Shown here piece after piece: positions 17,161 through 29,813 of a DNA stretch of 33,434 nt (position 1 is the first letter of the stretch; every line of letters begins with the position of its first letter). The stretch comes from Deltaproteobacteria bacterium (lineage in GTDB: Bacteria > UBA10199 > JACPAL01), in assembly GCA_016180855.1 (NCBI GenBank), contig JACPAL010000024.1:1-33434 (forward strand). Direction: 5' to 3'. The position numbers were made by a program, and so were the translations under genes. The notes under the pieces were generated by a model. It was not told the origin of the DNA and made no database searches. It saw nothing but the letters and a program-made list of their open reading frames with translations.

Positions 17161-17210
17161 GGCAAAGCAACAAAACAAGCGGATAGCCGATCATATAGTA
17201 AGAGTTGGCT

Positions 17211-17633
17211 ATGACATTATTTTTGAGAAGCATCGCCTCTTTGGGTTCTCTCTTCCTGATCAGTTGTCTAGCCCATGAAGAGGTTGTCCAATTACCTACT
17301 ACGCCTCGTCCTCAGGATGGGGATCCGGATCAGACAAAGGTTGAGATTGAGGATCTGCCCGATGGCGGAAAGCGAATGGTTGTCAGTAATCAGTGCAGTA
17401 CGGATATACATGCTACCTTTTTGACCCACTATGCCTATCGGCTTCACCAGGAATATGACGAACTTTTTCTGGTACGAAAACCTGGCTTTCAGTATCCGTG
17501 TCCCCGAGAGACAACCTATAAAATTGAAGAGCCGGTTTCTGATACCCGTTTTCTCAAAATCCCTTGCCTAGAAGGATATTTCCGGGCCGTCCTGGAAGGA
17601 CGGTGTGTCTCCAAAGGAGAGCTTAATGAATAA
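17211..17633 (+). CDS. Orphan lipoprotein
   Basis: A 140-residue protein with a lipoprotein signal: LRSIASLGSLFLISC ends in the lipobox LISC, so Cys18 would be lipidated. After an acidic, Pro-rich linker the mature domain (about 48-138) has several Cys (CSTD, PCPRE, PCLEG, RCVS) and no family that I recognise. The ATG at 17211 is chosen because it starts the hydrophobic segment. A TTG two codons upstream is possible. TATAGT just upstream could be a -10 box, but no -35 match is seen. Confidence 0.62.
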   Translation: MTLFLRSIASLGSLFLISCLAHEEVVQLPTTPRPQDGDPDQTKVEIEDLPDGGKRMVVSNQCSTDIHATFLTHYAYRLHQEYDELFLVRKPGFQYPCPRETTYKIEEPVSDTRFLKIPCLEGYFRAVLEGRCVSKGELNE

Positions 17634-17683
17634 AAGTTGTTTTTGTTAGCAACAGCGTTCTGAACAGCTCGATCTAACCTCCG

Positions 17684-18340
17684 ATGGTTACTGCGTCGGC
17701 AGTTGCAGCAACGCTCGGTGCGAACGTTATCGCCGATATCATTTCGGACGGATTTCTTCACTACAACTACAGACTGGATCAGGGAATCGTCGACAAGCCG
17801 TTTGGTGAAAAGGTGGAATCCCCCTTTTGGGGGACCCGCCTGCAGCATCATATTGGGATCCCGATTGCCGTGACTCTAACGGAGTATCTCTCCCAGGGGA
17901 TCTTCAAGAAAGCCCTTCGAACAGCCTCTTTCAAGGTCGAGACCCATCCACGGGCCTATCCTCTCCACAACGTCTGTTTCATCATTGTTGGCATTTTACT
18001 TTATTGTGGCCTCGATGCTGCTCTGAATCCCGAGTATAAAGGCCATCGCACGGAGTCATTCACAAAGGAAATTTATCCGACTCTTCGTGGTACTGCAGCC
18101 TCTATCGTTCCTATTCTTATGTTTGAGGGGACGGTCGTTCGTCTCTTTAGCAAGGTGACCCCATTTGTTAACTGGGCTGCGGATGACCTCCTGACCGATG
18201 TTGCTGTCTATCTGACTGTTAAAGGGTTTGGCTGGAACGACTATGGTGCCTGGGGTTTGACCGATCGTGAAAGGAAGAGGAATGGCCTCACAAAGCCTCC
18301 TCAAGGATGTAGTAGCTTCTTGAGTGTTGATTTTGTTTGA
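17684..18340 (+). CDS. Orphan multi-pass membrane protein
   Basis: A 218-residue protein with about three hydrophobic segments (near 58-70, 96-113 and 135-153) separated by charged stretches. I do not recognise its family. An in-frame TAA lies just before CCTCCG-ATG, so the start cannot be earlier. No Shine-Dalgarno sequence is visible and translation may be weak. It follows the orphan lipoprotein by 50 bp on the same strand, suggesting a shared envelope function. Confidence 0.6.
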   Translation: MVTASAVAATLGANVIADIISDGFLHYNYRLDQGIVDKPFGEKVESPFWGTRLQHHIGIPIAVTLTEYLSQGIFKKALRTASFKVETHPRAYPLHNVCFIIVGILLYCGLDAALNPEYKGHRTESFTKEIYPTLRGTAASIVPILMFEGTVVRLFSKVTPFVNWAADDLLTDVAVYLTVKGFGWNDYGAWGLTDRERKRNGLTKPPQGCSSFLSVDFV

Positions 18341-24679: not shown

Positions 24680-24736
24680 TCGGCTATCCGTTCTTTAGCC
24701 CCACAACCTTTCCACCCAATTGACGAATCCACCGGC

Positions 24737-27700
24737 GTGGAGGCTGGTTGCTCAAAGCTTGGCGTTGGGTGTGAAGGAAATCCGGCGCAATTTCCGGCGA
24801 AAACACCCCCTCCTTTCTCGCCAAATCCTTCCCCCTCATCCCGAGGTCAGATTGAGAATCCTGTCTTAAAAGGGGCGGCGGAGGCCCTCGATCAGATTGA
24901 GCGGGGGACTCAACATATCAAACGGTTCCCCCTGCCTTATGGGCATCGGCCCCTTTTTCAGAGCTGGCTCTCACCGGACCTGGATGTTCATTATGAATTT
25001 TTCGGAAAGTTTTTTGGTTATCCCGTTGCCCGACTACAAAAAGGGTGGGTCTATTTCCACTCCGATGAGGGGAGCTACTTTGAGACCGTGAACCCGGTTG
25101 TCTGGCGTGACGGAAAGATTGAGTCGGGACTCCTCAAGGTTCATGGACGCGTCGGGTTGACGATGAATAAACATTTTGATCGTGGGAAGATGCCTCTCTG
25201 GCTGGCTCTGGATAGGGTGCGTTTTGAAAACGGGAGGATCTATGCAACGGCTCGCACGTTTGTTGATGAGCGTCCCCCTTTCCCGCGTTTTGCCGACGAG
25301 GAACCGACGATCGACGCTGACCGGTTGCTCCTCCATTATAAATTCGGGTGTGCTAATTCACGGGGGGAATATGATGTGACCCCCGCTTTGGAGGAGTTTT
25401 TTCAGGGCTATTTTGAGGAACCCGCCCCCTCGGAACCGTTTGTCACCGGATTAAAAGGTTCCCGGCTCCTGGAGCTATTCGAGAGAACCTGGCAGAAAAA
25501 GAATCCATCCCCTCCCGGGACCGATTTCCCGCATTGGCCCTCCTGGAGGGAGACCGTGGAGGCGATCCAGGAGTTTGATTTTGAGGATCCGCTCTTTCAG
25601 GACAGGGAATCGGGCGAGGAGCTGACGGTCCGCAGTTTGGAGAATCTCATCCATCCGAATCAGTGGGGTTCTTCAGCCTTTTCGCCGGCCGTTCATCTGC
25701 GTCTTAAGGAAATCGGGTATATTGGAAGGCAGCATCGCTTATCCGTGGAGTTGGATCAGATCGATTTTATCATCCCCCAGGACCTTGTTTGGCACGATCC
25801 GAAAAATTTCTCCGGGACCGTGGAGGTCCGGTTGGGGCGGCTGGTCCACAAGGGGTTGCTTAAAGAGGGCCTTGTCGTTGAATCGCCGGACAAGATTATT
25901 TTTAAATTTCAAGGCGGTCCTGATGGCATCCAGATTGTCCAAAACGCCGGCCGGCTTTCTATTAACAGTTTTCAGCATGAGCTCTCCGCCAGGCTGACAG
26001 ATATTTTCTTGAATCTCCTCTATGATTATCGATCTCGTCAGCTCTCCCTGACAGGGGGGCTTCATTTTGATGGCATGGCAGGAAAGGCGATTCGTCTCCT
26101 GCCCCAGTTGACCCTTCAGGGGGAATGGGGCACTCATTGTGGATTTCGGTCCGAAGACCTTCTGGCGAACGGCGCCTTGATCAGTTGTCGAGGGAACCTC
26201 CGTGATTTTTCGATGGAGCGCCTTGGTTCCGAAGGAGTTTCTTCGTTGAGGGTCAATTTGGATCGTGCTGTTTTCAGGGGGGGGCGACTTTATTACAGCG
26301 GCCAGCAAGACCCCCTTCGTTTTAATCTCAAGGCGCTGGAGGGGAGATCAGGATTCCGGTTTAAAACACCGAAGGGTGCCAAGGGAGACTTCAAAACCCG
26401 GCTTCTTGTTTCCCAGCTGGAAGGGACTATCTCACCTTCCGGGACGGTCCATATGGAATCTTCTCACCCGCTCGCCTCCGCACCATTCGCGGTTTTAGAG
26501 GGAGGGGGTGTTTTACGTCGGTCGGACGGTTTGACGATCCCGATCCGGCAGGGGCTTATCAACCTCTTCTCCGTTGACTACTCGCCGTTCAAGGATCGTT
26601 GGCGTTTTCAGGGACTTCTTCAGGCCGACCACGAAAATCGCCCTGCCGACTACCTGCAGGCCGATCGCGATCAGGTCCTGTCATGGTCAGGTGAGCCGCA
26701 AAAGATCAGTGCGACCCTGTCGCTCCACGATTGGGAGATCGATCGTAAAGGGGCCCTGATCTTTAATGAAGGTGAACTGCTCGGTCGCTCCGTCGATCGT
26801 CGGGAAGTTTCCTCCCCTTCGTTATTTCCACAAGAAGCCGCTTCGCTCCCGACCGTCCTCCCTCCTCCGCTCCAGATTGAAACTAAACGGGAGGATCCGG
26901 CGGAGAGTCCTCTCCTCCCGGCGCTTCGTCAAATCCTTGGGAGTTTTGTTGCCTCCATCGACCAGATCAATCGTCTGCAGGTCGACCTGCCCCAGAATCC
27001 GACTGAGACCGAGATACCGCTTTGGGGGGATAACCTTACGGTGAGCTTTCGGTTCCCCCAAAAAATCTCCTGGAAGATGGAGATGGGGACCTGGCCTGAC
27101 CGTCGTACGGGAGAAGAGAAGGTTGCCTTTTTTTCCGTCGGTCCCCAGAGACCGATTCGAGCCTGTCTGAATCTTTTTGGGCGATGCATCACGGAAGAAG
27201 AGGTTGTCTTTGAGGGGGTCAGGCTTCATACCGAGGAACTTCCGCCGGAACAGTTTGACTGGACCCGTTTTCAATGGAGTGAACCCCAAGGGTATAAACC
27301 TGGGGAGCTTATTCTTCGGCTCTCTCACGGTGGCGGCCTTGTCAATTTGGTGAAGCTCCTGTTTGAGAGCCAGGGATTGGATCCGGCCTCTTTTGGCGTG
27401 AAGCAGGACGGAACAAGCTGGCGGCTCCCGCTCGATTGGGATCAGATCAGGAAATTGATCGGTGCCATTCTGAACCGCTCCGATGATAACGGTGCCTCTG
27501 GCGGTTCTCGTCCCACGGGATTACCAGCCAAGATTCGTAACACCCCCTCGTTTCTCTGGGATGAGATGACCGGTGTTATTGATCTCCAGTTTCAAGGGGG
27601 ACCCAGAGAGTTTCGGCTCGAAGGGGCAGGGAAGGTTCGTACCGATCTTTTGTTTGAGATGGATTCCAAGGCTCCTCTGAGGATCTGGAGGAATGAGCGA

Positions 27701-29143
27701 GATGGAAAAATAGGGGCTGATCCTTTTCACCTCCCCCATATCCGTTTGTCTGCCTCTCCATTTCTCCTGGAGCTCAAGGATTTTCAGGTTGGTGAAAAAT
27801 CAAGGTTCGTGATTGATCCTGGCCGGCGGAAATTACACGCCCCCTATCACCTTGATTTGCTCCAATTCCGTTTTAAACCTTCCGAAGGATCTCCCACATG
27901 GGATGGGGCTGTTACCTCGCTTGCCGGTAGGAATCTCACCTTCAATAAGGGAAATGAAACGGATCAGCTGGATCCGATGCAACGCCGTTTTGAGACCTCG
28001 ACGATCGGCTCAGACGAACTTCGGTTTGACTTCTCTCTTCAAAAGGCGTGTGAGGAATCGGCAGTTCATTGTAAGACCGCGCGGTTCGAGGGTTCCCCTC
28101 GCATCAGCCGGATTTTTTCCTTAAAGCAGTTTCCCCACCGTCTTGAAATTGGCTTTGGCAAACTTGAGGATCGCCAGATGAGCTTTGTGGGGGGGCATTT
28201 TGTTATCCCGCGCCTCCATTATAAGGCGAACAGGGGGGGGATAATCTCCGTTCCGTCGGGATCAGGAGGGATTTTTGATCAGGACTTCTACCTCTCTTTG
28301 CCGGAGCTCACTTTCTCTGCCGGAGGTACGATGGAGTTGGAGAAAGGCCTGACACTTCGACTCCGGGAGACGAGTTATGCACGCGGGGTCAACATCCAGG
28401 CCCGAAACGATGAGGTCCAGTTTTCAGGTGATGAGGTTCATCTTGCCTTTGACCGGATGACGCTCGACTTCTTGAAGAGCTTAGGATTACCACACCTGGA
28501 AGCGACCCTTCAGACAGCCGATTTTGACGGCTTCCTGGCCCAATCGACGGCTCGGAACAGAGATATCGATCTGCAGGGAAGGATGCGGTTCTCTTCCAAA
28601 GGGCATCTTACCCTTCATCATCACCACCCCTCCATTGACGTCGATCATCTTGAGTCGGATTTTTCCTTGAAGCTGGATGCCCTCCGACGCCTTCAAACAA
28701 CAGAAGGGGATCTCTCTCTCTTGGAATTTGAGGGCCTAACCCTCAAGGTGGCCGATCTCCATGCCCAACTGGCCCTTCTGGGAATTTTTGAGACCCATCT
28801 GGCGCATGAATTGAATCATCGACACCCTCATTTTGAAGGAGAGTTGATGATCCGGAAAGGGAGGATCCGGATCCAGAAGATTCCGGGCCAGACAACCCCG
28901 ACTGTTTCTGTGGAACTGAACGGCATCTCGCTTAACCAAAATGGGACGAGTTACGAGACGACATTGCAGCTCGGAGGGAAGGGGAGTAGTGTGGGGCTGG
29001 AGTTTCCGGATATTCAGTTCAACCTGAGCGGCCAGGGGGCGGTTGTTTTTACCAACGAGGGTGGTGTCTGGAGGAGGCAGATTACGCTCGGCCCCTCCGA
29101 ACTCTACCTCTTGTTTCAAGGGGGGAGGGTGAGGAGAAAATGA
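24737..29143 (+). CDS. Giant 1468-residue beta-rich protein of unknown function
   Basis: The longest gene of the window. Apart from a Pro/Ser-rich N-terminus (residues 15-40) and a Pro-rich linker near 690-760, it is a chain of short amphipathic beta-like repeats (for example LDQIDFIIPQDLVWHDPKNFSGTVEVRLGRLVHKGLL) with recurring Gly and hydrophobic spacing. This resembles large AsmA/TamB-like envelope proteins, but no specific motif or transmembrane helix was identified. There is no signal peptide at the present GTG start, which also lacks a ribosome site. The true N-terminus may lie elsewhere or involve a frameshift. It follows an MFS transporter gene in the same frame, 57 bp away. Functional assignment is open. 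Confidence 0.75.
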   Translation: MEAGCSKLGVGCEGNPAQFPAKTPPPFSPNPSPSSRGQIENPVLKGAAEALDQIERGTQHIKRFPLPYGHRPLFQSWLSPDLDVHYEFFGKFFGYPVARLQKGWVYFHSDEGSYFETVNPVVWRDGKIESGLLKVHGRVGLTMNKHFDRGKMPLWLALDRVRFENGRIYATARTFVDERPPFPRFADEEPTIDADRLLLHYKFGCANSRGEYDVTPALEEFFQGYFEEPAPSEPFVTGLKGSRLLELFERTWQKKNPSPPGTDFPHWPSWRETVEAIQEFDFEDPLFQDRESGEELTVRSLENLIHPNQWGSSAFSPAVHLRLKEIGYIGRQHRLSVELDQIDFIIPQDLVWHDPKNFSGTVEVRLGRLVHKGLLKEGLVVESPDKIIFKFQGGPDGIQIVQNAGRLSINSFQHELSARLTDIFLNLLYDYRSRQLSLTGGLHFDGMAGKAIRLLPQLTLQGEWGTHCGFRSEDLLANGALISCRGNLRDFSMERLGSEGVSSLRVNLDRAVFRGGRLYYSGQQDPLRFNLKALEGRSGFRFKTPKGAKGDFKTRLLVSQLEGTISPSGTVHMESSHPLASAPFAVLEGGGVLRRSDGLTIPIRQGLINLFSVDYSPFKDRWRFQGLLQADHENRPADYLQADRDQVLSWSGEPQKISATLSLHDWEIDRKGALIFNEGELLGRSVDRREVSSPSLFPQEAASLPTVLPPPLQIETKREDPAESPLLPALRQILGSFVASIDQINRLQVDLPQNPTETEIPLWGDNLTVSFRFPQKISWKMEMGTWPDRRTGEEKVAFFSVGPQRPIRACLNLFGRCITEEEVVFEGVRLHTEELPPEQFDWTRFQWSEPQGYKPGELILRLSHGGGLVNLVKLLFESQGLDPASFGVKQDGTSWRLPLDWDQIRKLIGAILNRSDDNGASGGSRPTGLPAKIRNTPSFLWDEMTGVIDLQFQGGPREFRLEGAGKVRTDLLFEMDSKAPLRIWRNERDGKIGADPFHLPHIRLSASPFLLELKDFQVGEKSRFVIDPGRRKLHAPYHLDLLQFRFKPSEGSPTWDGAVTSLAGRNLTFNKGNETDQLDPMQRRFETSTIGSDELRFDFSLQKACEESAVHCKTARFEGSPRISRIFSLKQFPHRLEIGFGKLEDRQMSFVGGHFVIPRLHYKANRGGIISVPSGSGGIFDQDFYLSLPELTFSAGGTMELEKGLTLRLRETSYARGVNIQARNDEVQFSGDEVHLAFDRMTLDFLKSLGLPHLEATLQTADFDGFLAQSTARNRDIDLQGRMRFSSKGHLTLHHHHPSIDVDHLESDFSLKLDALRRLQTTEGDLSLLEFEGLTLKVADLHAQLALLGIFETHLAHELNHRHPHFEGELMIRKGRIRIQKIPGQTTPTVSVELNGISLNQNGTSYETTLQLGGKGSSVGLEFPDIQFNLSGQGAVVFTNEGGVWRRQITLGPSELYLLFQGGRVRRK

Positions 29144-29168: not shown

Positions 29169-29231
29169 ATTTTATGGTCAACTAGGTACCTTTAGTAGCA
29201 TCCTTTTCAAATTGAAGTCGACGATACTACT

Positions 29232-29813
29232 ATGAGAGCTTCAACAATCCTAGACTTTACCTTAACAGCTCTGGGAGTTCTGGTGTTACCCCAATTAGTG
29301 GTCGGATATAACACCGCGCTTCGACCGGTTCTTCCATCCCGCATAAAAGAGGATGGGGAATTGAAGACACCTGACGAGTTCGCTCGCGAATTTGGCCCAA
29401 CCTGTCAGGCGTCTTATAACCAATTATTTGGAGACAACCCTTCTGAGTGGATAAGTGCAGAGCGTCAATTTACGTGGATTAAAAATAACTGTGACCCAAA
29501 ACTCCTCCCACAGCAGTACGATTCCTCGCTCGCCAGATGTCACGTAGGGCATATTTATAAAGAAATTGGTCGTGGCATTTTTGCCTTTAACATGAGCGTT
29601 TTTGGTTTTATAGCCCTTGGCGGGGTTAGTTTTGCTCGACTCCAGGGAAAGTTGACAACAAGAGAAGCTCTCTTGATCCTTGGCATTGCCAGCTTCTCCC
29701 TTTCGGTTGGTGGGTATGTCTTTGGAATGTTGGAGGGGAGCAGCTCCGTCGTCAAAAAAAGCAAGTTCGATCGGTCTTATCAAAAAGATTGCGGTGACTT
29801 CGAAATACGGTAG
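29232..29813 (+). CDS. Orphan membrane protein
   Basis: A 193-residue protein with an N-terminal hydrophobic segment (about 7-26), a polar domain with three Cys (CQASY, NNCDP, CHVGH), and two further hydrophobic segments (about 113-127 and 145-161) before a basic tail. The domain between the first and second helices is probably periplasmic, and its Cys residues could form disulfides. I do not recognise the family. No ribosome site precedes the ATG. The start lies inside an inverted repeat (29193-29202 with 29223-29232). Confidence 0.65.
   Translation: MRASTILDFTLTALGVLVLPQLVVGYNTALRPVLPSRIKEDGELKTPDEFAREFGPTCQASYNQLFGDNPSEWISAERQFTWIKNNCDPKLLPQQYDSSLARCHVGHIYKEIGRGIFAFNMSVFGFIALGGVSFARLQGKLTTREALLILGIASFSLSVGGYVFGMLEGSSSVVKKSKFDRSYQKDCGDFEIR

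What the first reader, a model, noticed from the sequence alone, without database searches (positions are those of the whole stretch)
24737..29143. 1468-codon orphan protein with a doubtful N-terminus
A very long, internally open gene with beta-repeat-like composition but no recognised domain. The present GTG start lacks a ribosome site and signal peptide. Another frame is open from 24699 to 24866 and could supply a different N-terminus by a frameshift. It may be a new type of envelope bridge (AsmA/TamB-like) or secreted structural protein linked to the adjoining MFS transporter.
Basis: partly seen in the sequence, partly recalled or inferred. Interest (0 to 1): 0.62.

Follow-up and report, generated by a model that had tools for sequence, protein, structure and literature searches.

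The report
Orphan giant, likely type III regulon
This very large bacterial protein belongs to no known family, and its gene carries the same unusual promoter as other genes apparently switched on by a regulator encoded inside a needle-type (type III) secretion gene cluster, so it is probably a protein the cell exports through that machine rather than the envelope bridge first suggested.

Summary
The 1468-codon gene is real and matches no Pfam, NCBIfam or PDB family. It is not a singleton: two full-length, colinear relatives (1517 and 1607 aa, about 21% identity) occur in 2 of the 45 other genomes held for the phylum. Both begin MAPP..., are proline-rich at the N-terminus, and lack a signal peptide or membrane helix. 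This argues against a hidden frameshifted leader and an AsmA/TamB anchor.
The missing ribosome site is explained by a sigma-28-type promoter. Upstream of both relatives and of other genes lies RCAAC-N(3+11+2)-CGA (typically GCCGATAA), 5-13 nt before the start, implying leaderless or near-leaderless mRNA. In 547 kb not fetched with this motif, exactly this spacing has 15 hits, against 0-4 at most other spacings. The window gene has ACAACCTT-N11-GACGAATC, 7 nt before GTG 24737 (p about 0.002).
The likely cognate sigma, FliA/WhiG-like, lies inside a non-flagellar type III secretion cluster in the three genomes read. SctV occurs in 44 of 46 genomes, including this one.
Best explanation (0.5): a signal-less, beta-rich candidate type III substrate. 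Regulon membership is well supported; export and molecular activity are inferred. Structure prediction failed (pLDDT 40 and 36).

The parts
24737..29143 (+). Coding sequence, 1468 aa, acidic, beta-rich, no signal peptide, no membrane helix, no known domain
   Evidence: two colinear relatives
24703..24710 (+). -35-like box ACAACCTT of a sigma-28-type promoter
   Evidence: PWM trained without this site, p about 0.002 together with the -10 box; spacing scan
24722..24729 (+). -10-like box GACGAATC (family consensus GCCGATAA; weak match, CGA core kept), exactly 11 nt after the -35 box and 7 nt before GTG
24737..24871 (+). Proline/serine-rich, probably disordered N-terminus (8 Pro in the first 40 residues); family homology begins at residue 23 (24803), where the relatives have MAPP...
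26414..27766 (+). Best conserved block of the family (residues about 560-1010)
   Evidence: pairwise BLASTP E 6e-10 and 4e-13
28247..28762 (+). C-terminal segment (residues about 1171-1342) of long antiparallel strands, the only part modelled at pLDDT mostly 60-79
17649..18340 (+). Second gene of the window with the same promoter: GCAACAGC-N11-CTCGATCT, then ATG 17684 (218 aa, no confident family)
17167..17633 (+). Third gene of the window with the same promoter: GCAACAAA-N11-GCCGATCA, then 17205/17211 (about 140 aa, lipoprotein-like signal)

Best explanation
The gene encodes a member of a new, rare family of giant (1470-1610 aa), beta-rich, signal-less proteins found so far only in this phylum. 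It is transcribed from a sigma-28-type promoter as an almost leaderless mRNA that starts at or next to GTG 24737. The promoter class (RCAAC-N11 spacer-GCCGATAA) marks a dispersed regulon, most likely read by the FliA/WhiG-like sigma factor encoded inside the non-flagellar type III secretion cluster of these bacteria. The protein is most likely a substrate of that system: kept in the cytoplasm, recognised through its disordered Pro/Ser-rich N-terminus, exported, and folding outside into an extended beta structure that binds or carries something rather than catalyses. Shown: the gene, the family, the start context, the promoter class, and the sigma gene inside T3SS clusters of three other genomes. 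Inferred: that this sigma reads these promoters, that the protein is exported by the T3SS, and what it does outside.
For: Relatives. Both relatives start MAPP..., 7 codons after an in-frame stop, with no hydrophobic N-terminus. The same promoter lies 11 and 13 nt before the two ATGs and 6 nt before a signal-less S8 peptidase gene adjoining one of them. Spacing scan over 547,554 bases that were not fetched with the promoter motif: 15 genes at spacing 11; of the other 23 spacings, 21 have 0-4, while 12 has 6 and 13 has 9. All 15 training sites have exactly that spacing; the window site, left out of training, scores p = 0.0023. The sigma lies beside SctJ, SctL and SctN in three genomes; at least 39 of 46 genomes have it, and in 11 it is 10-19 kb from SctV on the same contig. 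The three genomes of the family have no flagellin, so the sigma is unlikely to serve a flagellum there. The window's genome has SctV. Other genes with this promoter include signal-less proteins of kinds that usually act outside cells: S8 peptidase, GH114 glycosidase.
Against: Some genes with the promoter encode lipoproteins with Sec signals (window 17205, L017, L183, L116), so regulon membership does not prove type III export. The window site is a weak match in its -10 box. The sigma could not be seen in the window's own genome: its best hits there are 612 and 291 aa (probably RpoD and RpoH), but the contig next to its SctV is withheld (reads N from about C2:240001), so presence is inferred. 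Spacings 12 and 13 also have more hits than the rest (6 and 9). The family is in only 3 of 46 genomes, although the T3SS is in 44 of 46. No chaperone-like gene adjoins it. The structure models are too poor to test a fold.
Confidence: 0.5

Rival explanations
1. It is a cytoplasmic protein that is merely co-regulated with the type III system (scaffold, storage or stress protein) and is never exported.
For: No signal peptide or membrane helix; the same promoter also serves Sec-type lipoproteins, so the regulon is broader than T3SS substrates.
Against: 1500 residues of beta-rich, acidic, rapidly diverging sequence (about 21% identity between full-length relatives) with a Pro/Ser-rich N-terminus, and sharing its promoter with signal-less hydrolases of usually extracellular kinds, fit secreted proteins better.
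Confidence: 0.3
2. It is an AsmA/TamB/YhdP-like lipid-transfer bridge across the envelope.
For: Beta-type alternation along the whole length; predicted long antiparallel strands in the C-terminal part; a non-significant stray hit (E = 0.03) between relative P0002 and a GspN-like gene; LptD, LPD-3 and P47 among the insignificant Foldseek hits.
Against: No N-terminal anchor or signal in any of three members; no AsmA, TamB or YhdP Pfam/NCBIfam match at E up to 10; best Foldseek E-value 0.12 with probability at most 0.11.
Confidence: 0.08
3. The annotated N-terminus is wrong: the real gene starts in another frame, with a leader joined by a programmed frameshift or a sequencing error.
For: Another frame is open from 24699 to 24866, and codon usage is ambiguous at 24740-24800.
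Against: Both relatives have the same kind of signal-less start 7 codons after a stop; ORF-frame homology begins at residue 23 without a break; the alternative frame matches nothing; the promoter sits 7 nt before GTG 24737.
Confidence: 0.05

Closest known systems
Type III secretion substrates/effectors without Sec signals, read by a system-linked alternative sigma
   Same: No signal peptide, disordered Pro/Ser-rich N-terminus, promoter shared with other candidate substrates, T3SS present in the genome
   Different: No homology to any known effector; export not shown; linked regulators known from plant pathogens are ECF-type (HrpL; own knowledge), whereas this one is FliA/WhiG-type
FliA (sigma-28) flagellar regulon
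   Same: -10 box GCCGATAA and 11-nt spacer (E. coli consensus TAAAGTTT-N11-GCCGATAA, own knowledge)
   Different: -35 box is RCAAC rather than TAAA; no flagellin in the three genomes of the family; sigma scores 127-143 bits against the FliA/WhiG cut-off of 189.6
Myxococcus 'needleless' T3SS* (PMC12075869; Myxo group in PMC3459982)
   Same: Non-flagellar T3SS core with no flagellin; FHA- and TPR-containing proteins in the cluster
   Different: Cluster also holds FliG-like, FliM-like and FliA-like genes; secretin and needle presence not fully surveyed; neither paper's text mentions a sigma factor
AsmA/TamB/YhdP family
   Same: Long, beta-rich, about 1000-1500 aa
   Different: No membrane anchor, no family match, no signal peptide

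Membership tests
AsmA/TamB/YhdP | N-terminal transmembrane anchor or signal | tested here: not met
   Best KD19 in the first 60 residues 0.06, 0.04 and -0.29 in the three members; none reaches 1.6 anywhere
AsmA/TamB/YhdP | AsmA, TamB or DUF3971 domain by profile | tested here: not met
   No Pfam or NCBIfam match at E up to 10 for any of three members
AsmA/TamB/YhdP | Beta-groove (taco) fold | tested here: inconclusive
   Models at pLDDT 40 and 36; no significant fold match
Sigma-28-type regulon linked to the T3SS | -35/-10 boxes at the fixed 11-nt spacing just before the start | tested here: met
   p about 0.002 for the window gene with a matrix trained without it; spacing scan; the -10 box itself is weak
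Sigma-28-type regulon linked to the T3SS | Cognate sigma gene in the T3SS cluster | tested here: inconclusive
   Met in G001, G011 and G045; in the window's genome the stretch next to SctV is withheld
Sigma-28-type regulon linked to the T3SS | Transcription from this promoter by this sigma | not testable with these tools
   Needs transcript-start mapping or in vitro transcription
Type III secretion substrate | No Sec signal, flexible N-terminus | tested here: met
   N-terminus modelled as coil at pLDDT about 30
Type III secretion substrate | T3SS-dependent export | not testable with these tools
   Needs an experiment
Type III secretion substrate | T3SS present in the genome | tested here: met
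   SctV/FHIPEP at G000:C2:232298-234286, E 6e-235

The most novel reading that the evidence does not exclude
A phylum-wide, non-flagellar type III secretion system that keeps FliG-, FliM- and FliA-like parts runs its own sigma-28-type regulon of leaderless genes, through which uncultured bacteria export a large, unrecognised set of signal-less proteins, including this family of giant beta-rich proteins that act as structural or lipid-binding agents on other cells.
Probability: 0.3. Interest if true: 0.82.

Novelty: new variant of a known kind. Interest (0 to 1): 0.58.

Why it matters
It turns an unclassifiable giant protein into a testable candidate with a regulator and an export route, and gives a promoter signature that could find the secreted proteins of a whole uncultured phylum. 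A T3SS cluster that still encodes FliG-, FliM- and FliA-like proteins also bears on how injectisomes arose from flagella.

Tried and rejected
AsmA/TamB membership. Frameshifted N-terminus. MFS operon link. Recent DNA repeat at the N-terminus: the best secondary hit in the own genome is 27 nt at 85%. Phage origin: no relatives in phages or viral contigs. More relatives in genome contigs: both scans negative. Weak hits from P0002 in G017, G006 and G026 lie in unrelated genes. Homology between this protein and other genes of the regulon, or other giants nearby: none. A first count of GCCGATAA-N-ATG in three genomes looked enriched, but most sites lay inside genes; only adding the -35 box and spacing gave a usable test. 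Absence of the sigma in the window's genome was first read as loss; this was dropped when the T3SS contig turned out to be partly withheld. Flagellin genes of flagellated class members do not show the CGATA box. Foldseek on a poor model gave nothing; it was not repeated on the worse model. The phylum's name is not known to me from tool output; UBA10199 was only a guess used in a literature search.

Full report
The observation. The ORF 24737-29143 is exactly as described: 1468 codons, GTG start, no internal stop, and the only stop-free run of that size in the window. No Pfam, NCBIfam or PDB family matches it or its relatives. It has no Shine-Dalgarno, no signal peptide and no membrane helix. 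The beta-like character is real as hydrophobic alternation (z about +6), but there are no detectable internal repeats.

Relatives. The window's phylum is held as 46 genomes of one class. Two others encode full-length, colinear relatives: P0002, 1517 aa in G045, and P0003, 1607 aa in G011. Identity to the window protein is about 21%; P0002 and P0003 match each other over nearly their whole length (E 9e-70). Public genome contigs, viral contigs and phages gave nothing. The family is therefore real, rapidly diverging and patchy. Family homology in the window protein begins at residue 23, aligned with the MAPP... starts of the relatives. The relatives' frames extend only 7 codons above their ATGs and carry no hydrophobic leader, so a frameshifted signal peptide is not needed. 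The 56-codon alternative frame is unremarkable: 285 such runs exist in the window, and its translation matches nothing.

The start and the promoter. Upstream of both relatives' ATGs, and of a signal-less S8 peptidase gene next to P0002, stands the sigma-28-like -10 box [G][CG]CGATAA. A simple count of that box before ATG codons mostly found sites inside genes. Adding a -35 box gave a specific signal: [AG][CT]AAC + 3 nt, 11-nt spacer, two bases, CGA, 4-24 nt before a start. In 547,554 bases of loci that were not fetched with this motif, spacing 11 has 15 genes. Of the other 23 spacings tested, 21 have 0-4; spacings 12 and 13 have 6 and 9, perhaps a looser class. A few of the 15 are probably chance (for example a site inside the SctV gene in L165), and the loci holding the two relatives are those from which the motif was first noticed. 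A matrix trained on 15 sites without the window gene scores the window site (ACAACCTT-N11-GACGAATC, 7 nt before GTG 24737) at p = 0.0023 against shuffles and 0.0027 against other start codons. The -10 box is weak, but this genome and its family-mate have several such variants that keep the CGA core and the spacing. If the usual distance from -10 to transcript start holds, these mRNAs are leaderless or nearly so, which explains the missing ribosome site.

The regulator. A FliA/WhiG-like sigma of about 270-320 aa (117-148 bits, below the 189.6 cut-off) is present in at least 39 of the 46 genomes. In G001, G011 and G045 it lies inside a non-flagellar type III secretion cluster with a YscJ-type lipoprotein, stator, ATPase, FHA/YscD-like, FliG-like and FliM-like proteins. 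In 11 genomes it is 10-19 kb from SctV on the same contig. Only four genomes have flagellin, none of them those with this family. SctV is in 44 of 46 genomes including the window's own. In the window's genome the contig is withheld beyond about C2:240001, next to SctV, so the sigma could not be checked there.

What the protein probably does. Genes sharing the promoter include signal-less hydrolases of kinds that normally act outside cells (S8 peptidase, GH114), a HAD-like and an acetyltransferase-like protein (the last by eye only), several unknowns, and some Sec-type lipoproteins. The simplest reading is a regulon that serves the secretion system and its substrates, with this giant as one substrate. 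The lipoproteins show that the regulon is not made of substrates only, so export of this protein remains an inference. AlphaFold2 with three sequences gave pLDDT 40 and 36, with only residues about 1171-1342 near 60-79 as long antiparallel strands; Foldseek found nothing significant. No catalytic signature stands out, so a structural or ligand-binding role is guessed.

Known or new. The protein family is new to the libraries searched. As a system it would be a variant of a known kind: a type III substrate regulon under a sigma-28-type factor. Myxococcus has a 'needleless' T3SS* used in predation (PMC12075869), placed at the root of non-flagellar systems by PMC3459982; neither main text mentions a sigma factor. 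No open-licence paper found here describes a type III cluster with its own FliA-type regulon, but that library is incomplete.

Noticed in passing
window 17167-18340: Two further small unknown genes (about 140 aa lipoprotein-like, and 218 aa) with the same sigma-28-type promoter, GCAAC-N3-N11-NNCGATC, about 7 kb upstream of the giant gene.
   Followed up: partly
L196, L136, L143 (T3SS clusters of G001, G011, G045): A non-flagellar T3SS that keeps FliG-like (L196), FliM-like (L143) and FliA-like (all three) genes; SctV is in 44 of 46 genomes of the phylum while only 4 have flagellin. Possible intermediate between flagellum and injectisome.
   Followed up: partly
L195:10564-18297 (-), own genome G000:C2: A 2577-codon signal-less giant ORF with a Ser/Pro-rich N-terminus, not homologous to the window giant by BLASTP or by the family profile.
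   Followed up: partly
L195:4434-6932 (-), own genome G000:C2: 832-codon ORF of no Pfam family, with CAACCTCA and GTCGATG just before its start; annotated start may be slightly too far upstream.
   Followed up: partly
L145:2217-3494 (+), G011:C85: Signal-less GH114 glycosidase under the same promoter.
   Followed up: partly
window 29200-29813: 193-aa membrane protein of no Pfam family after the giant gene; GACGATAC lies 4 nt before its ATG but without the -35 box.
   Followed up: partly
L176:13404-14426 (+), own genome G000:C2: 340-aa HAD-like protein with ACAACTCT-N11-GGCGAACT before its start, on the same contig as SctV.
   Followed up: partly
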